Origin: Arenicola marina
Taxonomy: Eukaryota > Annelida > Polychaeta > Arenicolidae
Reading direction: 5' to 3'
Length of the DNA: 64,000 nucleotides
Assembly (NCBI GenBank): GCA_964019135.1
Contig: OZ025255.1
Span: 19,569,708-19,633,707, forward strand
The first letter of the stretch is position 1; every line of letters starts with the position of its first letter. The position numbers and the translations under genes are program-made. The notes beneath the pieces were generated by a model. That model worked only from the letters and a program-made list of their open reading frames with translations, did not search any database and was not told where the DNA came from. Positions 11,801-64,000 of this stretch are shown in pieces.

Positions 11801-11924
11801 GATACCCAGAATGTCTGTGATTGAGTCCCTATTGGTGAGGTAGAAAGAGCAAAGCATCATGAGCCTTATTAGAAGATAGATGTATGGAGCTGCGCTTCCA
11901 TTGGATATCAGAGTTCTGCAGCAA
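8871..11924. other. Intergenic, C-rich simple repeats, no supported gene
   Basis: Positions 8880-10200 are mixed single-copy sequence. Positions 10320-10510 are (CCCTCAC)n-like. Positions 10740-10910 are CCACCCC and CCTCCT tracts. Positions 11520-11755 are G runs with GTGTGTG. Short open frames near 9301-9609 match nothing I recognise. Confidence 0.5.
9945..9978 (+). mobile_element. Possible 3' end of a short retroelement fragment
   Basis: The sequence GGGAATAAATACTGATTC followed by a second TGATTC copy resembles the short-tandem 3' tails left by non-LTR elements in invertebrates. Upstream sequence shows no recognisable coding remnant, so this rests on the tail alone. Confidence 0.25.
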
Positions 11925-23700: not shown

Positions 23701-26700
23701 CACAGTCACTGCTCCACCAACAATGATGCATATTCTACGAAACATATTATGGAACCTATAATAATAGCTCTGTGTTGTTGTGCAGCCGTGCAGGTGACGG
23801 GTACGGAATACGTTGAGCGTGGCGGCATGGTGCGGCTGGTCTGCAACGCGTCCGGGCGGCCGGACCCACCGCATAACGTCGATTGGTACAAGGACGGGGA
23901 AAAGATCGAGTCGGACGCCGTGGGCGGAGTCATCATTACCAAGAAGATCGGGACCAAACAGCTCGTCAGCATGCTGGTGATCCAGGACACAGACATGACC
24001 GATGCCGGGGATTACATCTGCCGCTCCTCCAACAAGGACGCTGGCATGATCCAGGTCCGGATCCTGAACGGTGAGAAAAGGATGGATAGATGCTTCTTCT
24101 GGAGGTACAGGAGAAGTAGATTGAGAGTGCTGGCGAGAATGGGTACATATAGGGATCGTCGTTAAGGATTGCTGGTCGGGATGCTTCTGGATACATTGAG
24201 AGATAGTTAAGGATTACTAGTCAGACTTTTCAGGAAATGGGTAAGGATTACTGGTCAGAATGTTTCAGGAGATTGGGGAAATTAGTAAGGATTACTGGTC
24301 AGAATGTTTCAGGAGATTGGGGAAATTGGTAAGGATTACTGGTCAGAATGCTTCAGGAGATTGGGGAAATTGGTAAGGATTACTGGTCAGAATGTTTCAG
24401 GAGATTGGGGAAATTGGTAAGGATTACTGGTCAGAATGTTTCAGGAGATTGGGGAAATTGGTAAGGATTACTGGTCAGAATGTTTCAGGAGATTGGGGAA
24501 ATTGGTAACGATTACTGGTCAGAATGTTTCAGGAGATTGGGGAAATTGGTAAGGATTACTGGTCAGAATGTTTCAGGAGATTGGGGAAATTGGTAAAGTC
24601 TTACTTGTCGGGAGGCTGTTGAATGCATCTAGATATATTTATGATCTTGGAGACATCGGAACGGAGATACGGATTACTGATCGTGATTAGTGTTAGGGAG
24701 ACTGCTTCTGGAAATATCGAGATATATAAGCTAAGGATAATTGATCATTGCTTCTAGAGTCATCGGGACATCGTTAATAATTGCTGGTCGTGCTTAGTCT
24801 CAGGGATACGGCTTCTGGAGATATCTGGGGGTATTGAACGATCACATGTGTATAGATCTACTTCTGGAGACATCGGGAGATACTTAAGCATTCCCTGTCC
24901 AGAGTAGTGTTGATTGGACTGTTGCTGTAGTGTTGCCTCTGACGACTGGGATATGGCAGAGGATTGCTAGCCCTTTGCTACTTTATATGACATTGATTAC
25001 TTGTTGTAAACAGACAAAACTGATTTTGATGTGTATACTGCATGTTGTTTGTGATTGCTTAGATATCCAATTAAATATATCATCATTTGCTATATATATA
25101 TAAGGTTTAAGCAATTATTGCATACGCTGTTTGATATCGTGTTACATGATTAACGGCGCCTGCAAGGAGCATTGATTATCAATATGCGACTGTTCTGTTC
25201 TTATTAACTTACCTCTTGGCCGGTACTTAATGAAAGAATTGTCGTTTACAGTTCAGTCGCCGGTTGGAAAACGTGGTAAGCGATTTATTTGCTGTTTCTC
25301 TGTCTGCGTGTGACTGATTGTGAGTACATGGGACACCACTCACGTCAGGAACACCCGTATCCCTGATGTGCTCTATGACTACCTCCTTTACTATCCCTTT
25401 AACACCTTTGAATGAACCTCAATCGAAACTACGCCAATTTGTTCCCATATTTGCCATAGGAATACAATTTTGGAAAAAATAGCACCGAATAATGCTTCTT
25501 GGGTGTATCCTCTGATATACAAACCAGTCTGGTCCTGGTGTCCCATGGCATATTTCAAAGGTGGAAGCAATTTTCACACAAGCCAGACTGAAACATTCAC
25601 CACGTTATATGTTGAGTGTGGCCGCCAGGTGTATCCTGGAGTCGCGGGGGACTTTAACGACAATCCTCGTGTTTGGCGCGCGTCGATCGCTTTATTAAAG
25701 CGCCGAATCACGTGACTAAGTAATATCAAGTTTCTGAAGAACATGGACGTTACGCGCGTGAAACAAGGGTCACCAGGAGACGATTGGGAAGCACTCTTGT
25801 GCAGCAACGGCAGCCGCCGATTGCCTAGTGGCTGAAAACTAAAATCCCTTTCAAAAATCCCACAATGGTTGACTTCCATTATCCCACCTTGGAATCCAAG
25901 CGACAACTTCACTACAGAGTCCTATATAATGCCGAGATGCCCTGACGAGAACCGTTATAGTACGCGCCTCCGGGATATACAAGGATCATGCACACTAACA
26001 CCAGCCGAGGAACATTTAGTCGAACGTATGAAGCTTAAGGGAACCCCTCCTATTCTTTCTGTCTTTTGAAGATTTCATGAGTCAGATGCAACAGCTTGAC
26101 AAACCGCGCCAGGGTAAGTGAACATGGCGTCTTTGTTCATCTTACTCGCTGTCGTGGCCTCGCATCCCAATGTCTTATATATATATATATATATATATAT
26201 CTATTTATTATAGCACGCAGTGCAAACCCGTTTGTTGAACACTTATGTTCCCATAAATTATGCTTAGAGTTAGTGTAAGAATGCACCCGACATTGGCATA
26301 TTACTGGCAAAACAGCTTGACAACTTGATGACAAGGATACGTCATTTGACGATTCCAACATACAGAAAACTAACGACTCTAAGATGATACACACACCTTG
26401 GTACTATAACGGACAGAATGGAAGTCGTGTACAGTCGTGTAAATTTTAATATATTCATGTAACTTATAGACATGTTTAAATATGATATACCCATATATAT
26501 TAGACACACGTAATACATATGTTAGAGGATTGCAACTAATATAAAAACTTCGCATATAGTTCTGTCAAAGAAGTTCAATGAAAGAAACTTTCATATTCTC
26601 CTAGATTACGCATGTTACCCCAGTCCAGTGTTAACGCAAGCGATAGCCCTAATATAGCGTTGCACCGGCTGCATGTTTAACATTGTGCACCCATGTGAAC

Positions 26701-36643: not shown

Positions 36644-39482
36644 CCCAGATACCAAGTGGAGAACAACCAGATACCAGGTGGAGAACATTTATATACCAAG
36701 GGGGAGAACATCCAGATACCAAGGGGGAGAACATCCAGATACCAAGGGGGAGAACATCCAGATACCAAGGGGGAGAACATCCAGATACCAAGGGGGAGAA
36801 CATCCAGATACCAAGGGGGAGAACATCCAGATACCAAGGGGGAGAACATCCAGATACCAAGGGGGAGAACATCCAGATACCAAGGGGGAGAACATTTATA
36901 TAACAAGGGGGAGAACATCCAGATACCAAGGGGGAGAACATCCAGATACCAAGGGGGAGAACATCCAGATACCAAGGGGGAGAACATCCAGATACCAAGG
37001 GGGAGAACATCCAGATACCAAGGGGGAGAACATCCAGATACCAAGGGGGAGAACATCCAGATACCAAGGGGGAGAACATCCAGATACCAAGGGGGAGAAC
37101 ATCCAGATACCAAGGGGGACAACATCCAGATACCAAGGGGGAGAACATCCAGATACCAAGGGGGAGAACATCCAGATACCAGGTGGAGAACATCCAGATA
37201 CCAAGGGGGAGAACATCCAGATACCAAGGGGGAGAACATCCAGATACCAAGGGGGAGAACATCCATATACCAACGGGGAGAACATCCAGATACCAAGGGG
37301 GAGAACATCCATATACCAACGGGGAGAACATCCAGATACCAAGGGGGAGAACATCCAGATACCAAGGGGGAGAACATCCAGATACCAAGGGGGAGAACAT
37401 CCAGATACCAAGGGGGAGAACATCCAGATACCAGGTGGAGAACATCCAGATACCAAGGGGGAAAACATCCAGATACCAAGGGGGAGAACATCCAGATACC
37501 AGGTGGAGAACATCCATATACCAAGGGGGAGAACATCCAGATACCAGGTGGAGAACATCCAGATACCAAGGGGGAGAACATCCATATACCAAGGGGGAGA
37601 ACATCCAGATACCAAGGGGGAGAACATCCAGATACCAAGGGGGAGAACATCCATATACCAACGGGGAGAACATCCAGATACCAAGGGGGAGAACATCCAG
37701 ATACCAAGGGGGAGAACATCCAGATACCAGGTGGAGAACATCCAGATACCAAGTGGGAGAACATCCAGATACCAAGGGGGAGAACATCCAGATACCAAGG
37801 GGGAGAACATCCATATACCAAGGGGGAGAACATCCAGATACCAAGGGGGAGAACATCCAGATACCAAGGGGGAGAACATTCATATACCAAGGGGGAGAAC
37901 ATCCAGATACCAAGGGGGAGAACATCCAGATACCAAGGGGGAGAACATCCAGATACCAAGGTGGAGAACATCCAGATACCAAGGGGGAGAACATCCAGAT
38001 ACCAGGTGGAGAACATCCAGATACCAAGTGGGAGAACATCCAGATACCAAGGGGGAGAACATCCAGATACCAAGGGGGAGAACATCCATATACCAAGGGG
38101 GAGAACATCCAGATACCAAGGGGGAGAACATCCAGATACCAAGGGGGAGAACATTCATATACCAAGGGGGAGAACATCCAGATACCAAGGGGGAGAACAT
38201 CCAGATACCAAGGGGGAGAACATCCAGATACCAAGGTGGAGAACATCCAGATACCAAGGGGGAGAACATCCAGATACCAGGTGGAGAACATCCAGATACC
38301 AAGGGGGAGAACATCCATATACCAAGGGGGAGAACATCCAGATACCAACGGGGAGAACATTAATATACCAAGGGGGAGAACATCCAGATACCAAGGGGGA
38401 GAACATCCATATACCAAGGGGGAGAACATCCAGATACCAGGTGGAGAACATCCAGATACCAAGGGGGAGAACATCCATATACCAACGGGGAGAACATCCA
38501 GATACCAAGGGGGAGAACATCCATATACCAAGGGGGAGAACATCCAGATACCAAGGGGGAGAACATCCATATACCAAGGGGGAGAACATCCAGATACCAG
38601 GTGGAGAACATCCAGATACCAAGGGGGAGAACATTCATATACCAAGGGGGAGAACATCCAGATACCAGGTGGAGAACATCCAGATACCAACGGGGAGAAC
38701 ATCCAGATACCAAGGGGGAGAACATCCAGATACCAAGGGGGAGAACATCCATATACCAAGGGGGAGAACATCCAGATACCAAGGGGGAGAACATCCATAT
38801 ACCAAGGGGGAGAACATCCAGATACCAGGTGGAGAACATCCAGATACCAAGGGGGAGAACATTCATATACCAAGGGGGAGAACATCCAGATACCAGGTGG
38901 AGAACATCCAGATACCAAGGGGGAGAACATCCAGATACCAAGGGGGAGAACATCCAGATACCAAGGGGGAGAACATCCAGATACCAAGGGCGAGAACATC
39001 CAGATACCAGGTGGAGAACATCCAGATACCAACGGGGAGAACATCCAGATACCAAGGGGGAGAACATCCAGATACCAGGTGGAGAACATCCATATACCAG
39101 GTGGAGAACATCCAGATACCAGGTGGAGAACATCCAGATACCAACGGGGAGAACATCCAGATACCAAGTGGGAGAACATCCAGATACCAAGGGGGAGAAC
39201 ATCCAGATACCAAGTGGGAGAACATCCAGATACCAAGGGGGAGAACATCCAGATACCAAGGGGGAGAACATCCAGATACCAAGGGGGAGAACATCCAGAT
39301 ACCAAGGGGGAGAACATCCAGATACCAAGGGGGAGAACATCCAGATACCAAGTGGGAGAACATCCAGATGCCAAGGGGGAGAACATCCAGATACCAAGGG
39401 GGAGAACATCCAGATACCAAGGGGGAGAACATCCAGATACCAAGGGGGAAAACATCCAGATACCAGGTGGAGAACATTTAAA
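36644..39482. repeat. 23-bp minisatellite, about 123 copies
   Basis: Head-to-tail 23-bp units containing CCAGATACCAAGGGGG and AGAACAT, with 22-bp variants (ACCAGGTGGAG), and CATATACC, ACGGGG and AAGTGGG variants. Four A/G-rich words recur in larger blocks: one variant block at 37729 recurs at 38004 (275 bp, 12 units with one 22-bp unit). Frames of up to 988 (+) and 950 (-) residues pass through because the unit lacks stops in nearly all frames; they shift register at each 22-bp unit and do not look like genes. Confidence 0.96.
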
Positions 39483-41366: not shown

Positions 41367-44300
41367 GTACGTCTGGCGGCTCTCACCCGGGGGCGGGGGG
41401 TGGGGGGGGGGGGTTAGAAAAGGTTGACATCATCTTGAAAACTAACTGTTGACATTATCTTGGAAACTAACTGTTGACATTTTCTTGGAAACTAACTGTT
41501 GACATTATCTTGGAAACTAACTGTTGACATTCTCTCGGAAACTGTTAAAATTCTCTTGGAAATTAACTGCTAAAATCTTTTATGGAAACTAACTGTTGAC
41601 ATTATCTTGGAAACTAACTGTTGATATTATGTTGGAATCTAACTTTTGGTATTATCTTAGAAACTAACTGTCTACATTACATTTGAATCTAATAGTGGAT
41701 ATTATGTTTGAAACTAACTGTTAACATTATCTTGGATACTAACTGTTGCCAAGATCTTGGAAACTGTTGAAATGTTGACATGTTATTATGCTAACATTGA
41801 TATTAACATGGGTCTAACCCGACCACCCCTTTGAAAATGTGTTGCCCCCCCCCCCGCCCCGGCTCCATCCCCTTGACCTGCGAGTGATTCATAAATATGA
41901 TTCTTTGCCGCAGGATACAGGTATATTCAATGCTCGAGACATGAACTGGGAGGTCCTTCTGAAAGAAAGAGGCAGGATGACGTCACCGTCCAATGGTGTC
42001 TCGCGTTCTGTGGCGCGCAAGACCCGGCATACGGCTATGGAGGACTCAGGGTCAGTACCCAATGTGAGGGGAGGGAATAGCTTTTACCATGTCTGCGAAT
42101 GGCATCCAGGAATTCTTGGAGATTCGCGATAAGCGATTTTCTGGTTCAACGCAAAGACCCATTCACTACTTATCGCCATCCGTTATAGCAGTCTGTGACT
42201 TCGGTTGATATTCGCGATATAACCTTTAACGTTTTTGTTTTCGCGCCCGGTCTTGAACTGTCCTCAACTTGGAGATTCGATATTGCTCTCCCTAATTCTT
42301 GGTAATTTGCGATTCAGATGGGGCACCCCCACCCCCCACCCCCCCTCTCAATGTCTCTCCGCCATCGTCGGGTGAAGTGTATCTTATGTATGTGTTTGCT
42401 GCGTCAATGTGAAATGTGAGAATGCAGCTGCTACTGGGATGACGTCAAGCTAAAGACACAGCTGAGTGCGACCATTACGCTATCTGTCTACCTGTTAAAC
42501 GACGCGCCTACATTGCCAACATTCAGCAGGTTCCACCATCTAGATCCATCTACACTGATTGGTTCTCACCCATTGTGTGTTGCATGTTGAAATGCGGAAT
42601 TCAACATAACTTGTAAGCGGGCACGCAGCGGTTGAATAGTTCAGCATAACGTGTTAAATGTATTCCTATTTACCGACTATTCTACATCAGGACAAGTCGC
42701 ACACCCAAAGATATATTGAAACTTGAAATTGTATTAATGTCGAACTTCTAATATGCCATGCTCTTTATGTGGTGGTTTAATCAAATGTCAAGAGAAAGTG
42801 CGATTTGTTGTTTCAGTTCCAGCGAATTGCATGACCAATTACATCACACTTGTATTGATGTTTTTCCCTTATAGCGCACAAGGGCAGGGAGCAGCAATGC
42901 CGACTGTTACTGTTTGACTACTCCTGGCCGGAGCTTTGGTGCGACAAGATGTGGCACAACGTGTGGCGATCATCTTCAATGCGGAGGGCGACAACGCCCC
43001 TCATACGTCAGTGTGTATCAGGGTAGGTCAACACTGATAATGTGCCTCTGCGCCTTACTTCACATAAAGACTCCAAATGCTGAAGGTACATTCAACCACC
43101 AATATACCCATCATAACATTCGCACGTTTTTTACGCATCTTGAAGCTATTGTCACTGTCATGTCATAATACTATTGTCATCACTGTCATGTATGCTGTCC
43201 GTATTTATTCATGTGTTTGACGTGACATGGTTCGATATGGGTTGCCATGGGATAATATGGACTAGGGATATGGGATATCATGTATCATTTAATCTCGGCC
43301 TTGATACAGGGGTTAGAAAAGTTTTTCGTCTGTATTAAAATAATATTTTACTAACGATTGTGCACCTCCAAATGTTCTCAATCACATTTCATAATTTTCC
43401 CGCCAAACGTGCATGTATGTTACATAGTACAAGCAAATTCACAAACTATTCATCGATTTGGAAATACTCGCCGAAAAGCTAGAAATCTCCATTTTGGGCC
43501 TAATTGATAGCCTTCTTGGTTATAATCGAGCTTATAGAGCAATAGTTATTTCAGTATCATATCTGTATTTTGCTATTTATCTATGCGATGTGACGCTAGA
43601 CTTCAGTAGGCCCTTTTTGGGGTGGATTTAAAAATCTCTTTAAAAAAAACTATATTTTAAAGCCTGTTTCACATTGATCGCCATGTTAAAGCGAATTTGA
43701 CAATAATTGCCAAAATGTTTTTTAAGTCAAATCACATGTTTGTATTATATTTTTAAGTAGATCCATAGACAATACTTCTTTATGGAAAACGAAGATATTT
43801 CTTTAAGGGGAAATTTCTTTACCCCATCACCCAATCTCGACCTAAAACAAAAACGAGAGTAATGCGTGAACTACCATTGCTTGTTCACGCTCGATGTTTA
43901 TTTCTGTTGCAAAATTGAATTTGAACCTCGCATATTGGGCGCGCATTTCAGATGTCAACGAATGCCTGACCAACAATGGTGGCTGTAACCAGACGTGTGT
44001 CAACTCCCCGGGCAGCTTCTCCTGTCAGTGTCGGGAAGGCTATGATAAGACTGGCATGTTCTGCACAGGTAAGTCATGACGCATTACCGCTTATATATAT
44101 TTAACCTTTCTTCTGCATGCCATTAACGTGAACTTGTACATCGCTCATATCCTATGACTAAACTTAATGAACAGCTAAATCAATACGAACAGTCATCATG
44201 TTATTGCACGGATGAGGTAATATATATTGTGACTGACATACAATTCCTAGCTGAGTCATTATACATGTACATTGTGACTGACATTTTATGCTCAGATCAA

Positions 44301-47300
44301 TCATTATACATGTACATTGTGACTGACATTGTATGCTCAGATGAATCATTATACATGTACATTGTGATTGACATTGTGTGCTCAGATGAAACATTATACA
44401 TGTGCAGTGTGACTGACATTGTATGCTCAGATGAATCATTATACATGTACATTGTGACTGACATTGTATGCTCAGATGAATCATTATACATGTACATTGT
44501 GACTGACATTGTATGCTCAGATGAATCATTATACATGTACATTGTGATTGACATTGTATGCTCAGATGAATCATTATACAAGTGCAGTGTGACTGACATT
44601 GTATGCTCAGATAAATCATTATACATGTACATTGTGACTGACATTGTATGCTCAGATCAATCATAATACATGTACATTGTGACTGGATGGATGGATTCGT
44701 TTATTCAACAAAGTGTTACATAATAAGACTAACCGAACGATGTTTGTATAAGTATCACACTTAGTCGAGGAGACTCTAGTTAAGGCCGTGATAGGCCGCT
44801 GGCACTAGAGCCACCTAATAAATTAAATTTGGTAAATGATGACCCTATTTAAGAGAGAAAAAAGAAAAAAAACGAAAAAAAACGACAGGAATAGGCTAGG
44901 AAAAAAAACAAAAAAAACAACACAACTTGCGCTATTTGATGGTCAAACATACAAAGCAAAACGTACAAAAGCATTTGGTACATAATTGAAAAATTGAATT
45001 GAATTGAAAAATAAAAAATAAAATAAAATAAAACCCCCTATGCTTGACACACAAAACAGTTCTGTATATCACACTCTATTGGGTAGTCATTTATCATAAT
45101 TTGTTTAATAAATTGAGAGAATCCCTGTAGACTATGTGTGTAGATTTTATCTAAGATGGATTTAGGTTCATGATTTATTACATATACTAAACTATGTCTT
45201 ATACATTTAGTGGCATATTGATGGTGTGCACGGGTTGTTTGAACCAAATATTTACCCCTGGTGTTGTATGAGTGTACACTTGAAAGCTGGGCCAGTGGTA
45301 TTTGCTCAAAGTATATTGGAAGTTTTTTATTTACTAGTTTATAGTAAAATTTTAGAGTTTGCAATCGATGAATATCTTTAGCTTTTAGTAATTTAAGATC
45401 TTGGAACAAAGGATTCGTGTGTGCGTTATATTTACTGCCGGTTATGATCCGCACAGCTTTCTTTTGTAGCTTTTCCAATCGTTGTGTTTGGTAACCCCAG
45501 GCTAAGATACAATAGTTTAAGTGTGGTAACAGAAGCGTTTTATAAATTGATAACAGCGTATGTTGCGGAAGGATATACTTAGATCTGCTCATGATTGCAA
45601 TTACTTTACATACTTTAATTGCTATTTTATTTATATGGCTATTCCATTTTAAGGTTTTCTCTATAGTTAACCCGAGCATATTAAATTCGCCCACACATTC
45701 GATAGACGTTGTACCAATCACAAGTTTGGGAATATCAATTTTTTTTCCCGGCATGTAAAAGGGCATAAATTTACATTTATTCGGGTTCAGAGCCAATTTA
45801 TTTATTGCCAGCCATTGGCCAATTTTGCTCAATTCTCCATTTAGCATTTCCGCACTGGTCTCATGAGATGATATTGGTAAATTTGCGTTTAATGTGCTCA
45901 GAAGGGTTGTGTCATCCGCATATATAATAAATTTAAAAATGTCACTGGCGGATGTTATGTCATTTATGTATATTATAAATAAAAGAGGACCTAGAATAGA
46001 GCCTTGTGGAACGCCAGTGTGAATATTTAAATTATTAGACCTGGTATCTTCAAGTTGCACGTATTGTTTTCTGTCGCAGAGATAACTTTTAATGAGCTTT
46101 AAAGAGGTTGAATTCAGGCCATAATGCTTTAGTTTATGTAGAAGTATATCATGATTTATTGTATCGAATGCCTTAGACAAATCCAGATATATATTTATCG
46201 GAATTTCCCCGTTATCCATTTTTTGTAGAGTCTGATCAATTAGTTCAAGGCAGGCAAGTTCCGTGGAATGTTTTGGTCTAAAGCCGTATTGGCTGTTATT
46301 AAATAATTTGTTATCATCAAAATGTGAATAAAGTTGATTAGCGATAACTTTCTCAAAAATCTTAGAAAAGGCTGGTAGTATTGATATAGGTCTATAGTTA
46401 TTAAATACATCATTTTTCCCACTTTTAAAAATTGGAACCACCTTTGCTATTTTTAGCGAATCAGGGAAAATACCGGTTGACAACGCTTGATTAATTATTA
46501 GTGTAAGGGAGGCACTAACTTCCTGGTTGATAGCTTTGAGCAGCTTCACCGATATATCATAATGACCACAACTTGTTTTAGGCTTTAAAGCATCAACTAT
46601 TTTATTCGTTTCAGATATATCGATTGGTTTTAAATGCAGTTGATTCAAGCAGGGGTTCCTCAAATAAGTTTTAAACGAGCCACTGGTCTGCTTACTTAAT
46701 GTCTTGGTTAAACTAGGGCCGATATTGGTAAAGAAATTATTAAAGCCACTAGCTATTTTTGATTTATCTCTTGTTTGCTGACCATCAATTAAAAAACATT
46801 CAGGAAATTTCCTTTTGTTTGTTGACTTATTGATTATTTCTCCAAGCGCTTTCCAAGTTTGCTTCATATCAGTTTTACAAGATTCAAGTATTCCAAAAAA
46901 GTATTTTTTTTTGCGGCTTCGATGTTACGTTTCAGTATCTTGTTATATGTGTGTAGATTGGTTTTTAATGTGTGATGTATCAATGTATTAGGGGACGTTT
47001 CTTTTAGATTTTTGTATAGTTTATCACGAAATGATATCGATTTAATGATTCCATTCGTTATCCACTTGGCTTTTTTATGTTTACGTCTATTGTATTTAAC
47101 TGTTTTTAATGGTAGATGCTTGTCTTTGAGCAGAGATATCTCATTTTCTATGATTTGGTAGTTTAGATTAGGATCTAATAACATTGTCTTATCAAGTTTG
47201 CCGTAAATATCTAGGGAGAGTAGCTCCTTTTTTAGATTAACTAGCGCTTCTGGATCTGTTGTTTTCAATTTTATGAACCTAGAAGCCTGCACCTCGGTTA

Positions 47301-50300
47301 GAGCAACGTTCATAGATATAAAATAGGGAAAATGATCAGATATGGCATTTAGAAATATTCCACCAAATGATTCTATAATTTTCGGAGAGAGCCTACAGAA
47401 CATATTATCTATCAGTGATGCTCGAGTTCTAGACAACCTAGTTGGGAGAGTGATCTTTGGTATAAAACCATGCGTCATAGCCGCATCAAAGAAATCTGCT
47501 ACCGTTGGTTTTTCATTCAACTTTAATAAATCTATATTGAAGTCACCAGTGACTATTACCTCAGCATTTTGTTTTTCAAAGTATTTTACTGCTTGGGTAA
47601 ATTCATTTGTGAAGATTCTGTAGTTTTCGTTCACATCCCTAGGTGGCCTGTAGATATTGCCTACAATTACTTTCTTATTGAAGGATTTATGTGTCATTTC
47701 GACAAACTGCGACTCCCATACTGTACACTCTCCAGGGTAGATCACAGTATTATAAACAAAGTCATCACGCATGTAAGTTACAAGACCTCCGTGATTGGAC
47801 AGCAGTTTACCCTGTGATATAACATTATAGCCTGGCAAAATAAAGCGAGTTATGTCACAGTCTGATGAAAGCCAGCTCTCCTGTAAACAAATAATATCAA
47901 ATTCATTTCCCTGCTTACGTTGAGTATCCAGGAATATTTGTATCTCATCAAATTTTGCGTTTAATGAACAGCAGTTTAAACTTAGAATAGATAAACGGTC
48001 TCTGCAGCCAGTTAACCCCTCTATTATATCATCATTTTTATAATAAGGAGAGCATTTAAACAAATCTGGTTCAGCAGACATTTCATTATCTCCTTCCCCA
48101 GCAAAATTCAGCAAGTCAGACAGAGAGTTTTTCGTCAGACCACCAAAGTGTTTCAAGACGTTTTCCTGTAGGGATACCGCCATTTCGTCAGAGTAGCACA
48201 TAATGGCAGAATGCAGCCAGAAGATACAAATATACAGCAGTACATATTTGCAGCAGTACAGTCAGTTTCAGATTCGCGGTACCAAATACTTTGTTCATAA
48301 TCTATAATGAAGTTTGTAACAGCGCAAGACAACATAGGTGCAAAAAATAAAAAGAAAGACGTGATGAAGAAGAGGGGTTGAAAGATAGAGTGAAGAGAGG
48401 TGATATATGTGCATGGAAGCGGCGAGAAAGGCATAATACTAACGTTAAACACGTGAGGTAGAGTAGGGGAGGGGTCAATGATACGTCGGAGACGAGACGA
48501 GAAGAAAGACAAATCTTTGTGTTGTCAGAGATCCGTCAGCATGACGGACGGGGTCTCATGACATCAATTGCTATGGCATTTAATGTCAACATGATGTAAC
48601 AAATATGCCAGTAGCTGCAAGGGCGGTTGTTCATCAGAGTATCAAATTTATCAAGTGTCTTAGAAACAGGCCTAAAGCACAATTATCGAAGCAAACAGGG
48701 CGGTTATAATCAGGATTAAGGGGTGAGTGAGGTGGTAGGTATTATGCACGTTAACACTGCCCAATTCATAGTGCCGGTACACACGGGTCAGGGACACATA
48801 GTGACAACAAGCCCCTGAGTTGTACCTACATACCTTGTGAATGGTCTGAGCAATCCGAAACAATACTGGCATGTTTGGCCTAATTTTTTGAGCTGTATTC
48901 ACTTGAACGCAGGACACCATGACATCAGAACAAACACTGAACTTGCGGATCGCACAGGCAGAAAAGTTGCCAAAAGTCAACAGAAGTGTCTCCAAGGGTA
49001 TCCATACGATATGAATAATAGCATGAATAGCAAACATACACACTTGGAATTGCGTGGGTTGCTTTGTGATCCGAACGATTTGAGTTATGAGGCCGGCTTA
49101 TGCTGTTTCAGCGCAGATTCTACGGCCTTCCCCAGGAGCTTGTATCTGTCAGTCTTGGAGTGGAGGTCGGTGTAGCGGCGGGTGACGACAACTGCGATGT
49201 GTTCTAAGTTGTGGCGCTTGAGAAGGTATCTCACATGCCGTCCGGAGCCATAATCGCCATCATCCTGCCATCCATCTTGGTCGGCCGAGAGGCGATAGGC
49301 GATGATGTTGTGCATGGCCCCGGCCTTTTCGGGGGCAAGCAGCAGTTGGTGGTACACTCTCCTGACGTCCTGCAAGGTCTTGGCGGGGACCACTGTCGCA
49401 AAGGCACTAGCCCCGGTCTGGGTGATCACCTCCCCTTGCGTCACTTCCAGTAGAGCTAATCTTTCGTCTTCTCTTTCTCGTGGAGAGAGAGTCAGGATGT
49501 CCTGTGCCGATACAGCTGGAAGGAGGTCTCTTTGTCGCTCGTTGTTAATGTAGAGCGCGTCGTTCGTTACACGCGTGTTGACTGGATGTGGGGCTGCTCG
49601 ATCCCTGGCGGCCTGTGCCCTCTCTCCATACTCTCGGCGGCGTTCCTGTATCTCGGCTGGGAATTGGGGGGTGAACTTCACAGAGTCCTTACCCTTCTGA
49701 AGATGTCGTCTGGAGAACTCCAGCATATTGTCTACGTCCTTTTGACAAAGTATTCTGGCCACTATGGGTCTGGGGCGGACATGGGTGTCGCTTATCTTGG
49801 GTCCCAGGCGGTGGCATCGCTCAATGGTGGGATTACCGTTAAACCCGTTCTGGTGCAATATCTGTCTGAGTTTGGTCTCACAGTCCTCCCGTGGCTGTGC
49901 ACCCTGGACCGACGTATGCTCAGGCACGTTGTGAAGAAGCACATAATTTTTCATTGAACGATATTTGAGGTCGATACATTCATCCCTCAGATTTCGAATT
50001 TGTGTGTCCTGCTTCATAACGATTGCCTTTAGAGTTGCTACATCACCTCTTAAATCCGCAATCTCTTCTTGGTGTGTTGCGATCTGTCCAGAGTTGACGC
50101 CCTGACATTGTATGCACAGATGAATCATTATACATGTACATTGTGATTGACATTGTATGCTCAGATGAATCATTATACATGTACATTCTGACTGACCTTA
50201 ATGCTCGATGAGTGACACTAACGAGGACGGATGCGCTCAGCATTGTTGGAACACTCTTGGTAGTTACATCTGTAGTTGTGACGATGGATACATTGCTAAC

Positions 50301-53300
50301 AACACGGCATGTCACGGTAAGGTTTACTAATCAAACTTGGTTAATATTCAGGTATAGTTCGTCATGTTATATGGTGGTAGTCGTTTCATTATCAACATAT
50401 AATGGATCATCAAATACTGTGATTAACATAACGGCATAAACAGGTGGCTATGTAAAGTGACTAAATTAGCATGGTACAGATATATTTCGGCATTCTGATT
50501 GACATTAGAAACCACAATGTACTGTTGCCAATACCATGGATTTGAGGTGACTGGATTATGTCGCTTTAAGCCCGTAAGGCAATATCGTGCCATCCCCGTT
50601 GTGTGCAGTCAAAATTACTAAAATATGTTAAGGTGTAAAGAGTGACAACTAAACCCTCGTAAGTATGTAAGCGCAAGAGTATGTTGATACAATATTGGCA
50701 AAAACTCCCGAACTATGGTATAAGCGATATCTTAGTACAGATATATATCACTCTGCATGGTAAGGTATACATGTAACGGCATGCATGACTGACTAACATG
50801 TGTAACATCTGAACTTGTAACAACGACGAGTCTTATATTACTTAACTATATATAGTGATGGTATAATGAGTGTGTGGTGTTTTGCAGATATCAATGAATG
50901 CGCCATCGACAATGGCGGGTGTGACCACAATTGTACCAACACCCCTGGTGGCTACAACTGTTCATGTCTGGATGGATATGTCTCAGACAACACCACGTGT
51001 ACAGGCATGTAACATCTGGAACCCGTGGTTAATTGACAGTAATCTTTGTCTTACGCTGCATACTGCGCCTTTGCTTATCACATATAAAGATATAAATCTT
51101 GAGATAGAGAAAGGAACCATATTTCCCGTAATGGATGACCGTAACTTTGAGATCATGATAACACGTACTATTAGATAGATCATAATTAATGTGCTTGGAT
51201 CGCTCACTCAATGTAATACTAATCGTATCGTTGCAGATATAGACGAGTGCGCTGACGCAGCCATCCATAACTGCAGTCCTACGGACGAGTGTCGCAACAC
51301 GGATGGAAGCTTTCAGTGCATCCCTAAAGCGGTCGATACAACTGTTTCAAGCACCGTTACAGGTGAGACAGTTTCGTTTAGATTGACTCACCCAATTGAT
51401 ATACGCTGACAAACTACAATGTGCAAGATCTGCGCATCGTTATTCAAGATATTTACTTCTAAAACAGGTAGATCTTACAGTGTTTCTGTAAGTCTTTTTG
51501 TCAAAAGGGTGACTGATGTCGACAGGCCATTCATCATTTTTACGAGTTGATGGTCGTGTTAACTAGTACAATAGCATTCAATCTGAAGGGCGGCCGCTAA
51601 AATGCTGTAATCTGACCCAAACCGCCCTATTGCCCATTCTATCGACAATCGTTGCCATAGTGAAATTGCATAGAACAATTCCATATGACGTAACGCTAAA
51701 AATATGTGGTTATTGATGTAAAGGACCGGCCTACCTGCCTAGTTTCCTAGTTGCGTGTGCCACGTTTCTTGTCAATGATATATACGACGAGTTGATGGTC
51801 GTGTTAACTAGTGCAATAGCTTTAAATCTTTTTTCTTTTTTTTATATATATATTTTTATTTCCATAACGATGTTACAGTACAACAGTAATATATTTCAGA
51901 TCCATAATAAACGCATAGCATTACAGTATATTGCTTGGTACACCAAAGACGACGTTTTTACCACAATAAAAGCACTTAATCATCTCTAAATATTCATTAA
52001 ATTGCACATAATGGGTTCCCATTTGTTCTTAAATATAATAACAGACAAAGAAGGTTTTTGTTCTACCGCGGATTTTTCCACAGCATAGTAATACTTAACA
52101 CTATTGATGGCACTTTGATAATTTGGAATCTTTGTGGCCCATTTACAAATATAGAAATATTTCTTCACTTCTAGACTAAATGATTTAATAATCTACTATG
52201 TAGCGAGGTAACTACTCCCAGTATTATGGATTGCATGGACACTTCAAGTACCAGATTTGGGTCGGCCTCGTTTAACCAATTTGCTATTGTGTTCCATATA
52301 GGCTTGACAAATATACAACTATACAATAAATGGTCAATTGTTTCCGATTCATTTCCACAAAATACACATGTATCGGAGCTCACAAATTTACATCTATATA
52401 AAAAGGTATTTGTTACTAATGCTCTATGAAGAATAAGATACTGGAAGCTCCTCAAACGTTCATCGACAGTGGCGTTTACTGGTAGTTTGTAAAACTGTTT
52501 CCATTCTAACTCTATTTGTGGTTCCGATATTTCCTCCCATTTCGTTTCATTAACAATGTTATATGGCAAAGACTCAACGAATACATTACACAGATGGTTG
52601 CACAAGCGTTTTACCTTCAAAATAGCGTCTGTAAAGTTATATGTAACGGATGCCTGTTTCCCATGCAGTACAGAACATTGTTCTTTCCAGTCTCTTGGTA
52701 TAGAATGCATAAAACCATAAAAATCTACGAAATTTATGTCTAGTTTATATCTATTTACAAAGTGTTTCCAGCCCAGAAAGAGTCCATTTTCATTCACAAT
52801 ATCATTAACAAAAATAACCCCTTTCTTTATAAATTCTTCTTTTCGTCGTATTAAATTTTGGGCAATTTGTTTTTTCGTTTTTTTTTATTCCCGAAACTCC
52901 GTTAGTTTCCATATGGGATTCGTGCGGGACGGGTCAAGCTCCTAATGCAAACAGACTAGAATGAAAACCTGTCACTATTATTGAAAAAAGTCAAATTTGG
53001 CTCTAAAGAGTCAAATCTGGTTACTAGGGATCAAATCCGGATTATATGGCTACATTTCGGATCTGAGGGCTGAGCTATAGATCAGTAGGGTCAAATTGAG
53101 ATATGAGGGGTCAATCGGGATCCTAGAGCTGAAATTGAGATATGAAGGGTCCTCCCGGATTCTGGGGATCCATCCAGATCCTAGGGGTCCATTCTGTAAC
53201 TTGGATTCCATTTAAATCCTAGTGTCCAATCTGGATCTGAAAGTTCAAACCGGGATCTGAACAGTTTTTCTGTGCTTTGGCGTATTTAAGTTGAAGATAT

Positions 53301-57074: not shown

Positions 57075-60000
57075 AAGGTGATGCGGCAGGATAATGTTTC
57101 CAATTGGTTACCGAACTCCGCATGCCTATTGCCCGAGCCATTCAGCAGAAGATATGCGGCAGGATAATGTTTCCATTTGGTTACCGAACTCCCCATGCCT
57201 ATTGCCCGAGCCATTCAGCAGAAGATATGCGGCAGGATAATGTTTCCATTTGATTACCGAACTCCCTATGCCTATTGCCCGAGCCATTCAGCAGAAGATA
57301 TGCGGCAGGATAATGTTTCCTTTTGATTACCGAACTCCCTATGCCTATTGCCCGAGCCATTCAGCAGAAGATATGCGGCAGGATAATGTTTCCATTTGAT
57401 TACCGAACTCCCAATGCCTATTGCCCGAGCCATTCAGCAGAAGATATGCGGCAGGATAATGTTTCCTTTTGATTACCGAACTCCCTATGCCTATTGCCCG
57501 AGCCACTCAGCAGAAGATATGCGGCAGGATAATGTTTCCATTTGGTTACCGAACTCCCCATGCCTATTGCCCGAGCCATTCAGCAGAAGATATGCGGCAG
57601 GATAATGTTTCCATTTGGCTACCAAACTCCCTATGCCTATTGCCCGAGCCATTCAGCAGAAGATATGCGGCAGGATAATGTTTCCATTTGATTACCGAAC
57701 TCCCCATGCCTATTGCCCGAGCCATTCAGCAGAAGATATGCGGCAGGATAATGTTTCCATTTGATTACCGAACTCCCTATGCCTATTGCCCGAGCCATTC
57801 AGCAGAAGATATGCGGCAGGATAATGTTTCCTTTTGATTACCCAACTCCCTATGCCTATTGCCCGAGCCATTCAGCAGAAGATATGCGGCAGGATAATGT
57901 TTCCATTTGATTACCGAACTCCCAATGCCTATTGCCCGAGCCATTCAGCAGAAGATATGCGGCAGGATAATGTTTCCTTTTGATTACCGAACTCCCTATG
58001 CCTATTGCCCGAGCCACTCAGCAGAAGATATGCGGCAGGATAATGTTTCCATTTGGTTACCGAACTCCCCATGCCTATTGCCCGAGCCATTCAGCAGAAG
58101 ATATGCGGCAGGATAATGTTTCCATTTGGCTACCAAACTCCCTATGCCTATTGCCCGAGCCATTCAGCAGAAGATATGCGGCAGGATAATGTTTCCATTT
58201 GGCTACCAAACTCCCTATGCCTATTGCCCGAGCCATTCAGCAGAAGATATGCGGCAGGATAATGTTTCCATTTGATTACCGAACTCCCCATGCCTATTGC
58301 CCGAGCCATTCAGCAGAAGATATGCGGCAGGATAATGTTTCCATTTGGCTACCAAACTCCCTATGCCTATTGCCCGAGCCATTCAGCAGAAGATATGCGG
58401 CAGGATAATGTTTCCATTTGATTACCGAACTCCCCATGCCTATTGCCCGAGCCATTCAGCAGAAGATATGCGGCAGGATAATGTTTCCATTTGATCACCG
58501 AACTCCCTATGCCTATTGCCCCAGCAATTCAGCAGAAGATATGCGGCAGGATAATGTTTCCATTTGATTACCGAACTCCCCATGCCTATTGCCCGAGCCA
58601 TTCAGCAGAAGATATGCGGCAGGATAATGTTTCCATTTGGTTACCGAACTCCCCATGCCTATTGGCCGAGCCATTCAGCAGAAGATATGCGGCAGGATAA
58701 TGTTTCCATTTGATTACCGAACTCCCTATGCCTATTGCCCCAGCCATTCAGCAGAAGATATGCGGCAGGATAATGTTTCCATTTGGTTACCGAACTCCCC
58801 ATGGCTATTGCCCGAGCCATTCAGCAGAAGATATGCGGCAGGATAATGTTTCCATTTGGTTACCGAACTCCCTATGCCTATTGCCCGAGCCATTCAGCAG
58901 ACGATATGCAGCAGGATAATGTTTCCATTTGGTTACCGAACTCCCTATACCTATTGCCCGAGCCATTCAGCAGAAGATATGCGGCAGGATAATGTTTCCA
59001 TTTGGTTACCGAACTCCCCATGCCTATTGCCCCAGCCATTCAGCAGAAGATATGCGGCAGGATAATGTTTCCAATTGGTTACCGAACTCACCATGCCTAT
59101 TGCCCGAGCCATTCAGCAGAAGATATGCGGCAGGATAATGTTTCCATTTGATTACCGAACTCCCCATGCCTATTGCCCGAGCCATTCAGCAGAAGATATG
59201 CGGCAGGATAATGTTTCCATGTGGTTACCGAACTCCCCATGCCTATTGCCCCAGCCATTCAGCAGAAGATATGCGGCAGAATAATGTTTCCTTTTGATTA
59301 CCGAACTCCCTATGCCTATTGCCCGAGCCATTCAGCAGAAGATATGCGGCAGGATAATGTTTCCATTTGATTACCGAACTCCCCATGCCTATTGCCCGAG
59401 CCATTCAGCAGAAGATATGCGGCAGGATAATGTTACCATTTGATTACCGAACTCCCCATGCCTATTGCCCGAGCCATTCAGCAGAAGATATGCGGCAGGA
59501 TAATGTTTCCATTTGGTTACCGAACTCCCCATGGCTATTGCCCGAGCCATTCAGCAGAAGATATGCGGCAGGATAATGTTTCCATTTGATCACCGAACTC
59601 CCTATGCCTATTGCCCCAGCAATTCAGCAGAAGATATGCGGCAGGATAATGTTTCCATTTGATTACCGAACTCCCCATGCCTATTGCCCGAGCCATTCAG
59701 CAGAAGATATGCGGCAGAATAATGTTTCCATTTGATTACCGAACTCCCTATGTCTATTGCCCCAGCCATTCAGCAGAAGATATGCGGCAGGATAATGTTT
59801 CCATTTGGTTACCGAACTCCCCATGGCTATTGCCCGAGCCATTCAGCAGAAGATATGCGGCAGGATAATGTTTCCATTTGATTACCGAACCCCCTATGCC
59901 TATTGCCCCAGCCATTCAGCAGAAGATATGCGGCAGGATAATGTTTCCATTTGATTACCGAACTCCCCATGCCTATTGCCCGAGCCATTCAGCAGAAGAT

Positions 60001-63000
60001 ATGCGGCAGGATAATGTTTCCATTTGGTTACCGAACTCCCCATGCCTTTTGCCCGAGCCATTCAGCAGAAGATATGCGGCAGGATAATGTTTCCATTTGG
60101 TTACCGAACCTACTATGCCTATTGCCCCAGCCATTCAGCAGAAGATATGCGGCAGGATAATGTTTCCATTTGATTACCGAACTCCCCATGCCTATTGCCC
60201 GAGCCATTCAGCAGAAGATATGCGGCAGGATAATGTTTCCATTTGGTTACCGAACTCCCCATGCCTATTGCCCCAGCCATTCAGCAGAAGATATGCGGCA
60301 GGATAATGTTTCCAATTGGTTACCGAACCTACTATGCCTATTGCCCCAGCCATTCAGCAGAAGATATGCGGCAGGATAATGTTTCCATTTGATTACCGAA
60401 CTCCCCATGCCTATTGCCCGAGCCATTCAGCAGAAGATATGCGGCAGGATAATGTTTCCATTTGGTTACCGAACTCCCCATGCCTTTTGCCCGAGCCATT
60501 CAGCAGAAGATATGCGGCAGGATAATGTTTCCATTTGGTTACCGAACTCCCCATGCCTATTGCCCGAGCCATTCAGCAGAAGATATGCGGCAGGATAATG
60601 TTTCCATTTGGTTACCGAACACCCCATGCCTATTGCCCGAGCCATTCAGCAGAAGATATGCGGCAGGATAATGTTTCCATTTGGTTACCGAACTCCCTAT
60701 GCCTATTGCCCGAGCCATTCAGCAGACGATATGCAGCAGGATAATGTTTCCATTTGGTTACCGAACTCCCTATGCCTATTGCCCGAGCCATTCAGCAGAA
60801 GATATGCGGCAGGATAATGTTTCCATTTGGTTACCGAACTCCCCATGCCTATTGCCCGAGCCATTCAGCAGAAGATATGCGGCAGGATAATGTTTTCATT
60901 TGGTTACCGAACTCCCCATGGCTATTGCCCGAGCCATTCAGCCGAAGATATGCGGCAGCATAATGTTTCCATTAGGTTACCGAACTCCCTATGCCTATTG
61001 CCCGAGCCATTCAGCAGACGATATGCGGCAGGATAATGTTTCCATTTGGTTACCGAACTCCCCATGCCTATTGCCCGAGCCATTCAGCGGAAGATATGCG
61101 GCAGGATAATGTTTCCATTTGATTACCGAACTCCCTATGCCTATTGCCCGAGCCATTCAGCAGAAGATATGCGGCAGGATAATGTTTCCATTTGATTACT
61201 GAACTCCCTATGCCTATTGCCCGAGCCATTCAGCAGAAGATATGCGGCAGGATAATGTTACCATTTGATTACTGAACTCTTTATGCCTATTGCCCGAGCC
61301 ATTCAGCAGAAGATATGCGGCAAGATAATGTTACCATTTGATTACTGAACTCTCTATGCCTATTGCCCGAGCCATTCAGCAGAAGATATGCGGCAAGATA
61401 ATGTTACCATTTGATTACTGAACTCTCTATGCCTATTGCCCGAGCCATTCAGCAGAAGATAAACGGCAGGATAATGTTACCATTTGATTACTGAACTCTC
61501 TATGCCTATTGCCCGAGCCATTCAGCAGAAGATATGCGGCAAGATAATGTTACCATTTGATTACTGAACTCTCTATGCCTATTGCCCGAGCCATTCAGCA
61601 GAAGATATGCGGCAAGATAATGTTTCCACTTGGTTACCGAACTCCCCATGCCTATTGCCTGAGCCATTCAGCAGAAGATATGCGGCAGGATAATGTTTCC
61701 ATTTGGTTACCGAACTCCCCATGCCTATTGCCCGAGCCATTCAGCAGAAGATATGCGACAGGATAATGTTTCCATTTGGTTACCGAACTCCCCATGCCTA
61801 TTGCCCGAGCCATTCAGCAGAAGATATGCGGCAGGATAATGTTTCCGTTTGGTTACCGAACTCCCCATGCCTATTGCCCGAGCCATTCAGCAGAAGATAT
61901 GCGGCAGGATAATGTTTCCATTTGATTACCGAACTCCCCATGCCTATTGCCCGAGCCATTCAGCAGAAGATATGCGGCAGGATAATGTTTCCATTTGGTT
62001 ACCGAACTCCCCATGCCTATTGCCCAGCCATTCAGCAGAAGATATGCGGCAGGATAATGTTTCCATTTGGTTACCGAACTCCCCATGCCTATTGCCCGAG
62101 CCATTCAGCAGAAGATATGCGGCAGGATAATGTTTCCATTTGGTTACCGAACTCCCTATGCCTATTGCCCGAGTCATTCAGCAGAAGATATGCGGCAGGA
62201 TAATGTTTCCATTTGGTTACCGAACTCCCCATGCCTATTGCCCAGCCATTCAGCAGAAGATATGCGGCAGGATAATGTTTCCATTTGGTTACCGAACTCC
62301 CCATGCCTATTGCCCGAGCCATTCAGCAGAAGATATGCGGCAGGATAATGTTTCCATTTGGTTACCGAACTCCCTGTGCCTATTGCCCGAGCCATTCAGC
62401 AGAAGATATGCGGCAGGATAATGTTTCCATTTGATTACCGAACTCCCTATGCCTATTGCCCGAGCCATTCAGCAGAAGATATGCGGCAGGATAATGTTAC
62501 CATTTGGTTACCGAACTCCCTATGCCTATTGCCCGAGCCATTCAGCAGAAGATATTCGGCAGGATAATGTTTCCATTTGGTTACTGAACTCCCCATGCCT
62601 ATTGCCCGAGCCTTCAGCAGAAGATATGGGGCAGGATTATGTTTCCATTTGGTTACCGCACTCCCTATGCCTATTGCCCGAGCCATTCAGCAGAAGATAT
62701 GCGGCCGGATAATGTTTCCATTTGGTTACCTAACTCCCCATGCCTATTGCCCGAGCCATTCAGCAGAAGATATGCGGCAGGATAATGTTTCAATTTGGTT
62801 ACCGAACTCCCCATGCCCATTGCCCGAGCCATTCAGCAGAAGGTATGCGGCAGGATAATGTTTCCATTTGGTTACCAAACTCCCCATGCCTATTGCCCGA
62901 GCCATTCAGCAGAAGATATGCGGCAGGATAATGTTTCCATTTGGTTACTGAACTCCTCATGCCTATTGCCCGAGCCATTCAGCAGAAGATATGCGGCAGG

Positions 63001-64000
63001 ATAATGTTTCCATTTGGTTACCGAACTCCCCATATCTTTTGCCCGAGCCATTCCACAGAAGATATGCGGCAGGATAATGTTTCCATTTGGTTACCGAACT
63101 CCCAATGCCTATTGCCCGAGCCATTCAGCAGAAGATATGCGGCAGGATAATGTTTCCATTTGGTTACCGAACTCCCCATGCCTATTGCCCGAGCCATTCA
63201 GCAGAAGATATGCGGCAGGATAATGTTTCCATTTGCTTACCAAACTCCCCATGCCTATTGCCCGAGCCATGCAGCAGAAGATATGCGGCAGGATAATGTT
63301 TCCATTTGGTGACCAATCTCCCTATGCCTATTGCCCGAGCCATTCAGCAGAAGATATGCGGCAGGATAATGTTTCCATTTGGTTACCGAACTCCCCATGC
63401 CTATTGCCCAGCCATTCCACAGAAGATATGCGGCAGGATAATGTTTCCATTTGGTTACCAAACTCCCCATGCCTATTCCCCGAGCCATTCCACAGAAGAT
63501 ATGCGGCAGGATAATGTTTCCATTTGATTACCGAACTCCCTATGCCTATTGCCCGAGCCATTCAGCAGAAGATATGCGGCAGGATAATGTTTCCATTTGG
63601 TTACCGAACTCCCCATGCCTATTGCCCGAGCCATTCAGCAGAAGATATGCGGCAGGATAATGTTTCCATTTGGTTACCGTACTCCCCATGCCTATTGCCC
63701 GAGCCATTCAGCAGAAGATATGCGGCAGGATAATGTTTCCATTTGGTTACCAAACTCCCTATGCCTATTGCCCGAGCCATTCAGCAGAAGATATGCGGCA
63801 GGATAATGTTTCCATTTGGTTACTGAACTCCCTATGCCTATTGCCCGAGCCATTCAGCAGAAGATATGCGGCAGGGTAATGTTTCCATTTGGTTACCAAA
63901 CTCCCTATGCCTATTGCCCGAGCCATTCAGCAGAAGATATGCGGCAGGATAATGCTTCCATTTGGTTACTGAACTCCCTATGCCTATTGCCCGAGCCATT
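57075..64000. repeat. 73-bp satellite, about 95 copies, continues past the window
   Basis: Head-to-tail 73-bp monomers with GCGGCAGGATAATGTTTCCA, TTTGGTTACCGAACTCCCCA, TGCCTATTGCCCGAGCCATT and CAGCAGAAGATAT. Most copies differ at a few fixed sites (GGTTACC/GATTACC, CCCCATG/CCCTATG, CGAGCC/CCAGCC). Copies near 62025, 62243 and 63407 have lost one base (TTGCCCAGCC). A seven-monomer block at 57396 recurs at 57907 (511 bp). A subfamily with GATTACTGAACTCTCTATG and CAAGATAATG clusters at 61190-61620. As 73 is not a multiple of 3, the same 69-residue open frame appears in all frames; it is a by-product. Confidence 0.97.

What the first reader, a model, noticed from the sequence alone, without database searches (positions are those of the whole stretch)
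49085..50101. LINE ORF1 protein carrying an IMPACT/YigZ (UPF0029)-like domain
Seen in sequence: after a coiled coil and an L1-type RRM core ([24 protein letters not shown]), the same open frame continues through [41 protein letters not shown] and [12 protein letters not shown]. Established: these positions follow the IMPACT/UPF0029 family (A-x-HNI-x-AYR, DDGE-type loop, GR, VVV-x-R-x-Y, D-R-x-K), whose eukaryotic member binds GCN1 and restrains GCN2. Inference: a retrotransposon captured a host translation-stress regulator, possibly to keep translation of its mRNA going under stress or to bind RNA/ribosomes. I do not know this architecture as a described ORF1 type.
Basis: partly seen in the sequence, partly recalled or inferred. 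Interest (0 to 1): 0.87.

Follow-up and report, generated by a model that had tools for sequence, protein, structure and literature searches.

The report
Jumping gene carrying IMPACT-like domain
A family of self-copying retrotransposons in this animal-like genome builds a relative of the host translation regulator IMPACT into the tail of its RNA-packaging protein, an arrangement I found no description of, although its job is still unknown.

Summary
Window 49085-50101 (-) encodes a LINE ORF1 protein: coiled coil, L1-type RRM and CTD, then a UPF0029/IMPACT domain (Pfam 44.6 bits, cut-off 27; predicted fold matches YigZ at 1.9 A over 118 residues and L1 ORF1p). The window copy is one 5.4-kb insertion in a 45-bp minisatellite, 5'-truncated inside ORF1, its ORF2 in two frames. 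In the same genome 119 places (window copy included) were scored of 1314 candidates. All 15 close copies have endonuclease about 0.9 kb and RT about 2.2 kb downstream; 10 divergent copies also pair with an RT. In 7 subfamilies UPF0029 dN is below or tied with RRM+CTD in 16 of 21 pairs, so it looks like a working module. Best guess: an extra basic RNA- or ribosome-contacting module of the LINE RNP (inferred). My library searches listed no description; Repbase could not be searched. New variant of a known kind.

The parts
44686..50101 (-). whole LINE insertion (5'-truncated at 50101; 3' end ...CCATCCATC at 44686)
   Evidence: Flanked on both sides by the same 45-bp minisatellite (44226-44685 and 50102-50211). 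Low flank ends at phase 10 and high flank starts at phase 7 of the unit, each matching 87 of 90 bases, i.e. a 3-bp duplication CTG. Similarity to copy L004 ends at the 5' junction.
49085..50101 (-). ORF1, 338 codons plus stop, lacking about 102 first codons
49961..50101 (-). end of the coiled coil (ORF1 residues 1-47 of the window frame)
   Evidence: predicted helix 3-51; L1 ORF1p match begins at residue 6-9
49508..49960 (-). L1-type RRM and CTD (residues 48-198)
49103..49429 (-). UPF0029/IMPACT-like domain (residues 225-333)
48184..49084 (-). spacer between ORF1 stop and ORF2 Met, about 0.9 kb
   Evidence: gap from the last ORF1 sense codon to the EN Met is 892-912 bp in 15 of 15 close loci, the window copy included
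46864..48183 (-). ORF2 first part: apurinic-type endonuclease
   Evidence: PF03372 E 2.7e-7 (scanned as 46864-48261)
45038..46924 (-). ORF2 second part: reverse transcriptase, in another frame than the endonuclease in this copy
   Evidence: PF00078 E 9e-36; LINE-1 ORF2 protein 9k6g_A E 1.3e-17
44226..44685 (.). 45-bp minisatellite, target side 1
50102..50211 (.). 45-bp minisatellite, target side 2

Best explanation
Shown: a LINE with two ORFs (EN-RT ORF2) whose type II-like ORF1 protein (coiled coil, RRM, CTD) ends in an IMPACT-type UPF0029 domain, present in divergent subfamilies of this genome and evolving under constraint like the RRM. Inferred: an ancestral element took the domain from a eukaryotic IMPACT-like gene long ago. 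Inferred: in the ORF1p multimer the domain adds a second, basic RNA- or ribosome-contacting surface next to the RRM/CTD, helping ORF1p stay on its own translating mRNA and build the RNP. The conserved loop residues (A-x-H, DDG, G-x-G-R, T-R, K) would be the contact face. The window copy is a 5'-truncated insertion of this family with ORF2 in two frames.
For: Domain identity: Pfam UPF0029 at E 0.01 in 11 of 11 ORF1s given, Yih1 by profile, fold. Linkage: 15 of 15 close ORF1 copies (window copy included) have RT 2156-2175 bp downstream on the same strand; in all 25 of 119 ORF1 places pair within 8 kb with one of the 70 scored RT places (10 of the pairs divergent, RT 54-56% identical), against 0.04 expected by chance. 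In-frame same-strand endonuclease lies downstream in 24 of 30 fetched loci. Constraint: UPF0029 dN (two decimals) is lower than RRM+CTD in 12, tied in 4 and higher in 5 of 21 pairs of 7 subfamily representatives, with dS saturated or at least 1.2; A262, H264, D281, G282, G287, T307, K321 are in 26 of 26 copies. Basic domain: net charge +2 to +8 in 5 of 5 LINE domains against -3 in the Yih1 domain (a single cellular control). PMC4503747 passages say invariant loop motifs cluster on one face of the Yih1/YigZ domain, and that a Yih1 region suffices for ribosome binding.
Against: No binding data of any kind. The Yih1 region sufficient for ribosome, actin and Gcn1 binding overlaps the linker after the RWD and need not involve the ancient domain. 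Net charge was compared with one cellular protein only. In this genome the IMPACT signature HLGP has decayed (residue 314 is H in 11 of 26). In the five-protein alignment UPF0029 is less identical (36.7%) than RRM (42.1%) and CTD (44.3%). Two of the 7 representatives used for dN (L017, L018) hold stop codons, and within-subfamily counts are small and mixed. 94 of 119 ORF1 places and 45 of 70 RT places were not paired, among them 20 of 35 close RT copies, which I take to be 5'-truncated without having looked. ORF1 and ORF2 differ strongly in GC (53.6 and 34.5%).
Confidence: 0.45

Rival explanations
1. Stress-response antagonist: the domain blunts GCN1/GCN2 or another eIF2alpha-kinase arm so that LINE mRNA stays translated under stress.
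For: Homology to IMPACT/Yih1. PMC10289378 passages propose that mouse L1 ORF1p uses PRKRA to prevent activation of PKR, a precedent for a LINE evading this pathway.
Against: GCN1 binding is linked to the RWD domain, which was not listed for 11 ORF1s, 6 of them with their N-terminus. PMC10289378 has 0 occurrences of GCN1 or GCN2.
Confidence: 0.15
2. Ligand-binding or catalytic module: the domain keeps an unknown small-molecule or nucleotide activity, like the NADAR and esterase domains of other LINE ORF1 proteins.
For: Acidic and glycine loop residues kept in 24-26 of 26 copies (D280, D281, G282, G287). Enzyme-like domains are known in other ORF1s: NADAR in oyster Tx1 LINEs (PMC12477816), esterase (PMC3905857). 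P0007 is an ORF1-like protein with NADAR.
Against: No activity is recorded for UPF0029 in the passages seen; PMC4503747 calls its function and partners elusive.
Confidence: 0.2
3. Passive passenger: the domain was fused once and is only kept as a folded spacer.
For: In this genome the HLGP signature varies.
Against: Constraint similar to the RRM over deep divergence and invariant loop residues; retained in four further divergent proteins.
Confidence: 0.08
4. Artefact or composite: ORF1-UPF0029 is a host gene piece or separate element lying by chance next to an unrelated LINE ORF2.
For: GC contrast between ORF1 and ORF2; the two-frame ORF2 of this copy.
Against: Single insertion in phase of one minisatellite; 15 of 15 close copies with the same spacing, and divergent pairs too.
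Confidence: 0.01

Closest known systems
Type II ORF1 of CR1/L2-lineage and L1 LINEs (coiled coil, RRM, CTD; PMC4120745: abstract, first part of Results with Table 1, and Discussion read)
   Same: Coiled coil, L1-type RRM and CTD upstream of an EN-RT ORF2
   Different: Table 1 lists PHD, RRM, CCHC, Tnp22, esterase, coiled-coil and zinc-finger/leucine-zipper parts, no UPF0029; here a UPF0029 domain is added at the C-terminus
NADAR-bearing ORF1 of oyster Tx1 LINEs (PMC12477816, passages)
   Same: A small domain with cellular relatives in a LINE ORF1
   Different: NADAR is an unrelated family
IMPACT / Yih1 (GCN2 inhibitor)
   Same: UPF0029 domain, closest by sequence profile among solved structures (Yih1 E 2.5e-12)
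   Different: IMPACT has an N-terminal RWD domain and is a cellular gene; in the ORF1s no RWD was listed and a coiled coil and RRM precede the domain
YigZ family (1vi7, and 2cve of T. thermophilus)
   Different: NCBIfam YigZ model is matched only in part by P0001 (13-104 of 205) and far below its cut-off, 18.7 against 167.95 bits
Esterase ORF1 of ZfL2-1 type LINEs (PMC3905857, passages)
   Same: A domain with cellular relatives in an ORF1 with a coiled coil
   Different: The paper reports no RRM in the esterase ORF1s of Repbase; here the RRM is kept

Membership tests
LINE type II (L1-like) ORF1 protein | coiled coil before the RRM | tested here: met
   helix 3-51 in the window copy and 37-101 in P0005; aligned with the L1 ORF1p coiled coil
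LINE type II (L1-like) ORF1 protein | L1-type RRM followed by CTD | tested here: met
   by sequence profile E 1.5e-5 to 2ldy
LINE type II (L1-like) ORF1 protein | match to a Pfam L1 ORF1 (Transposase_22) model | tested here: not met
   none listed at E 10 for P0001 or at E 0.01 for 11 ORF1s
LINE type II (L1-like) ORF1 protein | lies upstream of an EN-RT ORF2 in one element | tested here: met
LINE type II (L1-like) ORF1 protein | trimerises and binds RNA | not testable with these tools
   needs protein work
UPF0029 / IMPACT domain family | Pfam gathering score | tested here: met
   44.6 against 27 bits; 150 of 150 scored genome places (of 289 candidates) over the cut-off
UPF0029 / IMPACT domain family | YigZ N-domain fold | tested here: met
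IMPACT protein proper | N-terminal RWD domain, linked to GCN1 binding | tested here: not met
   no RWD listed at E 0.01 for 11 ORF1s, of which 6 include their N-terminus
IMPACT protein proper | binds GCN1, inhibits GCN2 | not testable with these tools
   needs protein work
YigZ protein proper | full-length match over the NCBIfam cut-off | tested here: not met
   best of six proteins 24.2 against 167.95 bits, partial (P0005)
CR1/L2-type LINE (Jockey superfamily) | ORF2 with apurinic-type endonuclease then RT | tested here: met
CR1/L2-type LINE (Jockey superfamily) | RT phylogenetic placement in a named clade | not tested
   no reference RT set was available; the lineage is a recalled resemblance only

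The most novel reading that the evidence does not exclude
A LINE lineage turned a host translation-control domain into a permanent part of its RNA chaperone and uses it on ribosomes, either to hold ORF1p on its own translating mRNA (cis preference) or to shield that mRNA from stress-induced shut-off.
Probability: 0.3. Interest if true: 0.88.

Novelty: new variant of a known kind. Interest (0 to 1): 0.7.

Why it matters
How LINE ORF1 proteins find their own mRNA and keep being translated is an old open question. A constrained IMPACT-type domain inside ORF1p, in a family with many open copies, gives a direct handle. It would also provide a system in which the function of the widespread but unexplained UPF0029 domain can be read out as transposition. 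It adds to the list of ORF1 accessory domains (PHD, esterase, NADAR).

Tried and rejected
Chance motif resemblance: rejected by Pfam, profile and fold evidence. Host gene fragment or composite insertion: rejected by flanks and recurrent spacing. GCN1 capture as stated: weakened.

Led nowhere: scans of viral contigs with A1, P0003, the window RT and A2 and of bacterial/archaeal genome contigs with P0005 and A2 gave no relative. A protein search with the UPF0029 part of P0004 found only P0004 itself. A plasmid search with P0005 gave 7 records with partial hits, two with a YigZ family protein under the match. The endonuclease gave no PDB match below E 0.6 by sequence.

Own errors: the endonuclease query was an off-frame translation (one search showed 49 stops). 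Those endonuclease numbers are superseded, made with the correct frame; the third-position GC of the endonuclease is off-frame too and not used. The ORF1 and 5'-end results stand, except that the longest-frame lines for loci with the match on the minus strand read the wrong strand and are not used.

Not done: RT clade assignment, expression, a tree of the UPF0029 domain against many IMPACT proteins, a look upstream of the unpaired RT copies, classing of the UPF0029 places outside scored ORF1 matches, and a count of related ORF1s without the domain (search with P0006 did not complete).

Full report
Observation. The frame at 49085-50101 (-) is open for 338 codons. At E 10 Pfam lists two families, of which one is over its cut-off: UPF0029 (PF01205) at residues 235-331, E 1.6e-11, 44.6 bits against 27. 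Against solved structures, the single sequence matches yeast Yih1 only weakly (E 0.21). A profile of four relatives gives E 1.6e-11, of the UPF0029 part alone E 2.5e-12, and of 11 ORF1s E 7.2e-11; the same 11-sequence profile matches LINE-1 ORF1p with its middle part at E 1.5e-5 (2ldy).

Relatives elsewhere. Two searches of the large protein collection found four proteins with the same architecture (P0002-P0005, 34-41% identical, each with UPF0029). They also found P0006 (288 aa, E 4.2e-24), for which no UPF0029 was listed at E 1, and P0007 (E 2.4e-11), whose C-terminal domain is NADAR instead. NADAR-like domains in ORF1 of Tx1 LINEs of the Pacific oyster are in print (PMC12477816, passages).

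The insertion. The same 45-bp minisatellite lies on both sides of 44686-50101. Each flank matches the unit in 87 of 90 bases, and the two flanks meet in phase with 3 bp (CTG) duplicated. So ORF1, spacer, endonuclease (46864-48183) and RT (45038-46924) most simply arrived as one insertion. The element is 5'-truncated at 50101: similarity to copy L004 ends there, while eight copies (L002, L003, L005-L010) share with L004 a 5' end 104-123 bp before the ORF1 Met. The ORF1 of L004 has 440 residues. The endonuclease and RT of the window copy are in different frames; seven other RT places lie in stop-free frames of 1074 codons.

The family in the genome. The window lies in an 867-Mb genome, animal by inference from its EGF and Ig exons. 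With P0001, 119 places were scored of 1314 candidates: 11 over the whole query at 98-100% identity (window copy included), four 5'-shortened at 84-98%, and 104 at 44-60%; 115 of 119 matches reach residue 301 or beyond. With the window RT, 70 places were scored of 11010 candidates. Same-strand RT within 8 kb downstream was found for 25 of 119 ORF1 places: 15 of 15 close copies at 2156-2175 bp and 10 divergent ones at 1247-2577 bp; one pair lay in another arrangement; 0.04 pairs are expected by chance. Of the RT places, 15 of 35 close and 10 of 35 divergent ones were paired. Both lists hold only the best candidates; the unpaired ORF1s and RTs were not examined further. Within the 1.5-kb flanks of the 30 fetched loci, an in-frame same-strand endonuclease was found in 24 of 30: 15 of 15 close and 9 of 15 divergent.

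UPF0029 in this genome is largely a LINE domain. A search with PF01205 scored 150 of 289 candidates, all above the cut-off. Of the 150, 81 lie inside one of the 119 ORF1 matches, and 84 lie in open frames of 300 codons or more. Of the top 12 loci, 11 have RRM-core sequence upstream on the same strand, in L032 only 25 residues of it and in L037 in another frame; L038 has none. One place (C10:33245131, L043) reads as an exon of the host's own IMPACT gene, with the signature VTRWYGGIHLGPDRFKHI. The other places were not classed.

Constraint. 26 ORF1 copies of the 30 fetched loci (the four shortened ones, L012-L015, were left out) fall into 7 subfamilies at 85% identity. dN between representatives is 0.22-0.37 in UPF0029 and 0.26-0.44 in RRM+CTD (21 pairs): lower in UPF0029 in 12, tied in 4, higher in 5. 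dS is 1.2 or more, or beyond correction, in every pair, so ratios are rough. Four of the 26 copies (L017, L018, L019, L027) hold stop codons, which were skipped; L017 and L018 are among the representatives. A262, H264, D281, G282, G287, T307 and K321 are in 26 of 26; G285 and R288 in 25; D280 and R308 in 24; position 314 is variable. Within subfamilies pN/pS of UPF0029 is 0.15, 0.26 and 0.39 in three groups and undefined in a fourth; for RRM+CTD 0.31, 1.85, 0.82 and 0.31 (few changes). In the five-protein alignment the UPF0029 domain is less identical (36.7%) than RRM (42.1%) and CTD (44.3%) and more than the linker (26.5%).

How it may work. GCN1 binding by IMPACT/Yih1 is linked to its RWD domain (PMC5054600 and PMC4503747, passages), which was not listed for 11 ORF1s, 6 of them with their N-terminus. 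PMC4503747 says the function of the ancient domain is elusive and that its invariant loops cluster on one side. The LINE domains are basic (net +2 to +8, 5 of 5) where Yih1's is acidic (net -3), a one-protein control. Together with its place after RRM and CTD in a presumed multimer, I infer an added RNA- or ribosome-contacting surface. A link to stress signalling stays possible: PMC10289378 (passages) proposes that mouse L1 ORF1p uses PRKRA to prevent PKR activation.

Known or new. PMC4120745 (abstract, first part of Results, Discussion) tabulates ORF1 domains of Jockey-superfamily elements (448 analysed); UPF0029 is not in Table 1. UPF0029 with retrotransposon: 0 papers. UPF0029 with transposon words, two of four terms: 20 listed, none holding UPF0029. 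UPF0029 alone: 4 papers in the library, listing only apart from PMC5054600, none about transposons by title. PF01205 or YigZ with retrotransposon or transposable: 8 listed, one of which (PMC12157461, on Trypanosoma cruzi, not opened) holds YigZ. Subscription papers and Repbase were not searchable; an unremarked Repbase entry with this ORF1 may well exist. I call it a new variant of a known kind: a LINE with a modular ORF1.

Noticed in passing
P0007, residues 266-412: An ORF1-like protein from a JGI record ends in a NADAR domain; NADAR-like domains in ORF1 of oyster Tx1 LINEs are in print (PMC12477816, passages).
   Followed up: partly
window about 43950-44069, 50205-50320, 50888-51007 (+): Exons of an EGF-repeat gene on the + strand (Pfam tested for the first and third); the LINE lies antisense in the intron between the first two. 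Exon ends are estimates.
   Followed up: partly
window 44226-44685 and 50102-50211: LINE insertion into a 45-bp minisatellite with only a 3-bp target duplication.
   Followed up: yes
window 52171-52884 (-): Fragment of another LINE ORF2 with a zf-RVT domain (PF13966, E 3.5e-10).
   Followed up: no
window 49085-50101 against 45038-48189: GC is 53.6% in ORF1 and 34.5% in ORF2, third-position GC 59 in ORF1 and 30% in the RT part, falling roughly gradually from 5' to 3'; unexplained, possibly modular origin.
   Followed up: no
window 956-64000: The window is rich in long minisatellites (e.g. 73-bp unit at 57081-64000, 23-bp at 36645-39477, 42-bp at 11915-14329).
   Followed up: no
window 23644-24165 (+): Immunoglobulin-domain exon (PF13927, E 5.6e-12).
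   Followed up: no
L043:1529-1660 (+): Exon of the host's own IMPACT gene with the HLGPDRF signature, clearly different from the LINE domain of the window.
   Followed up: partly
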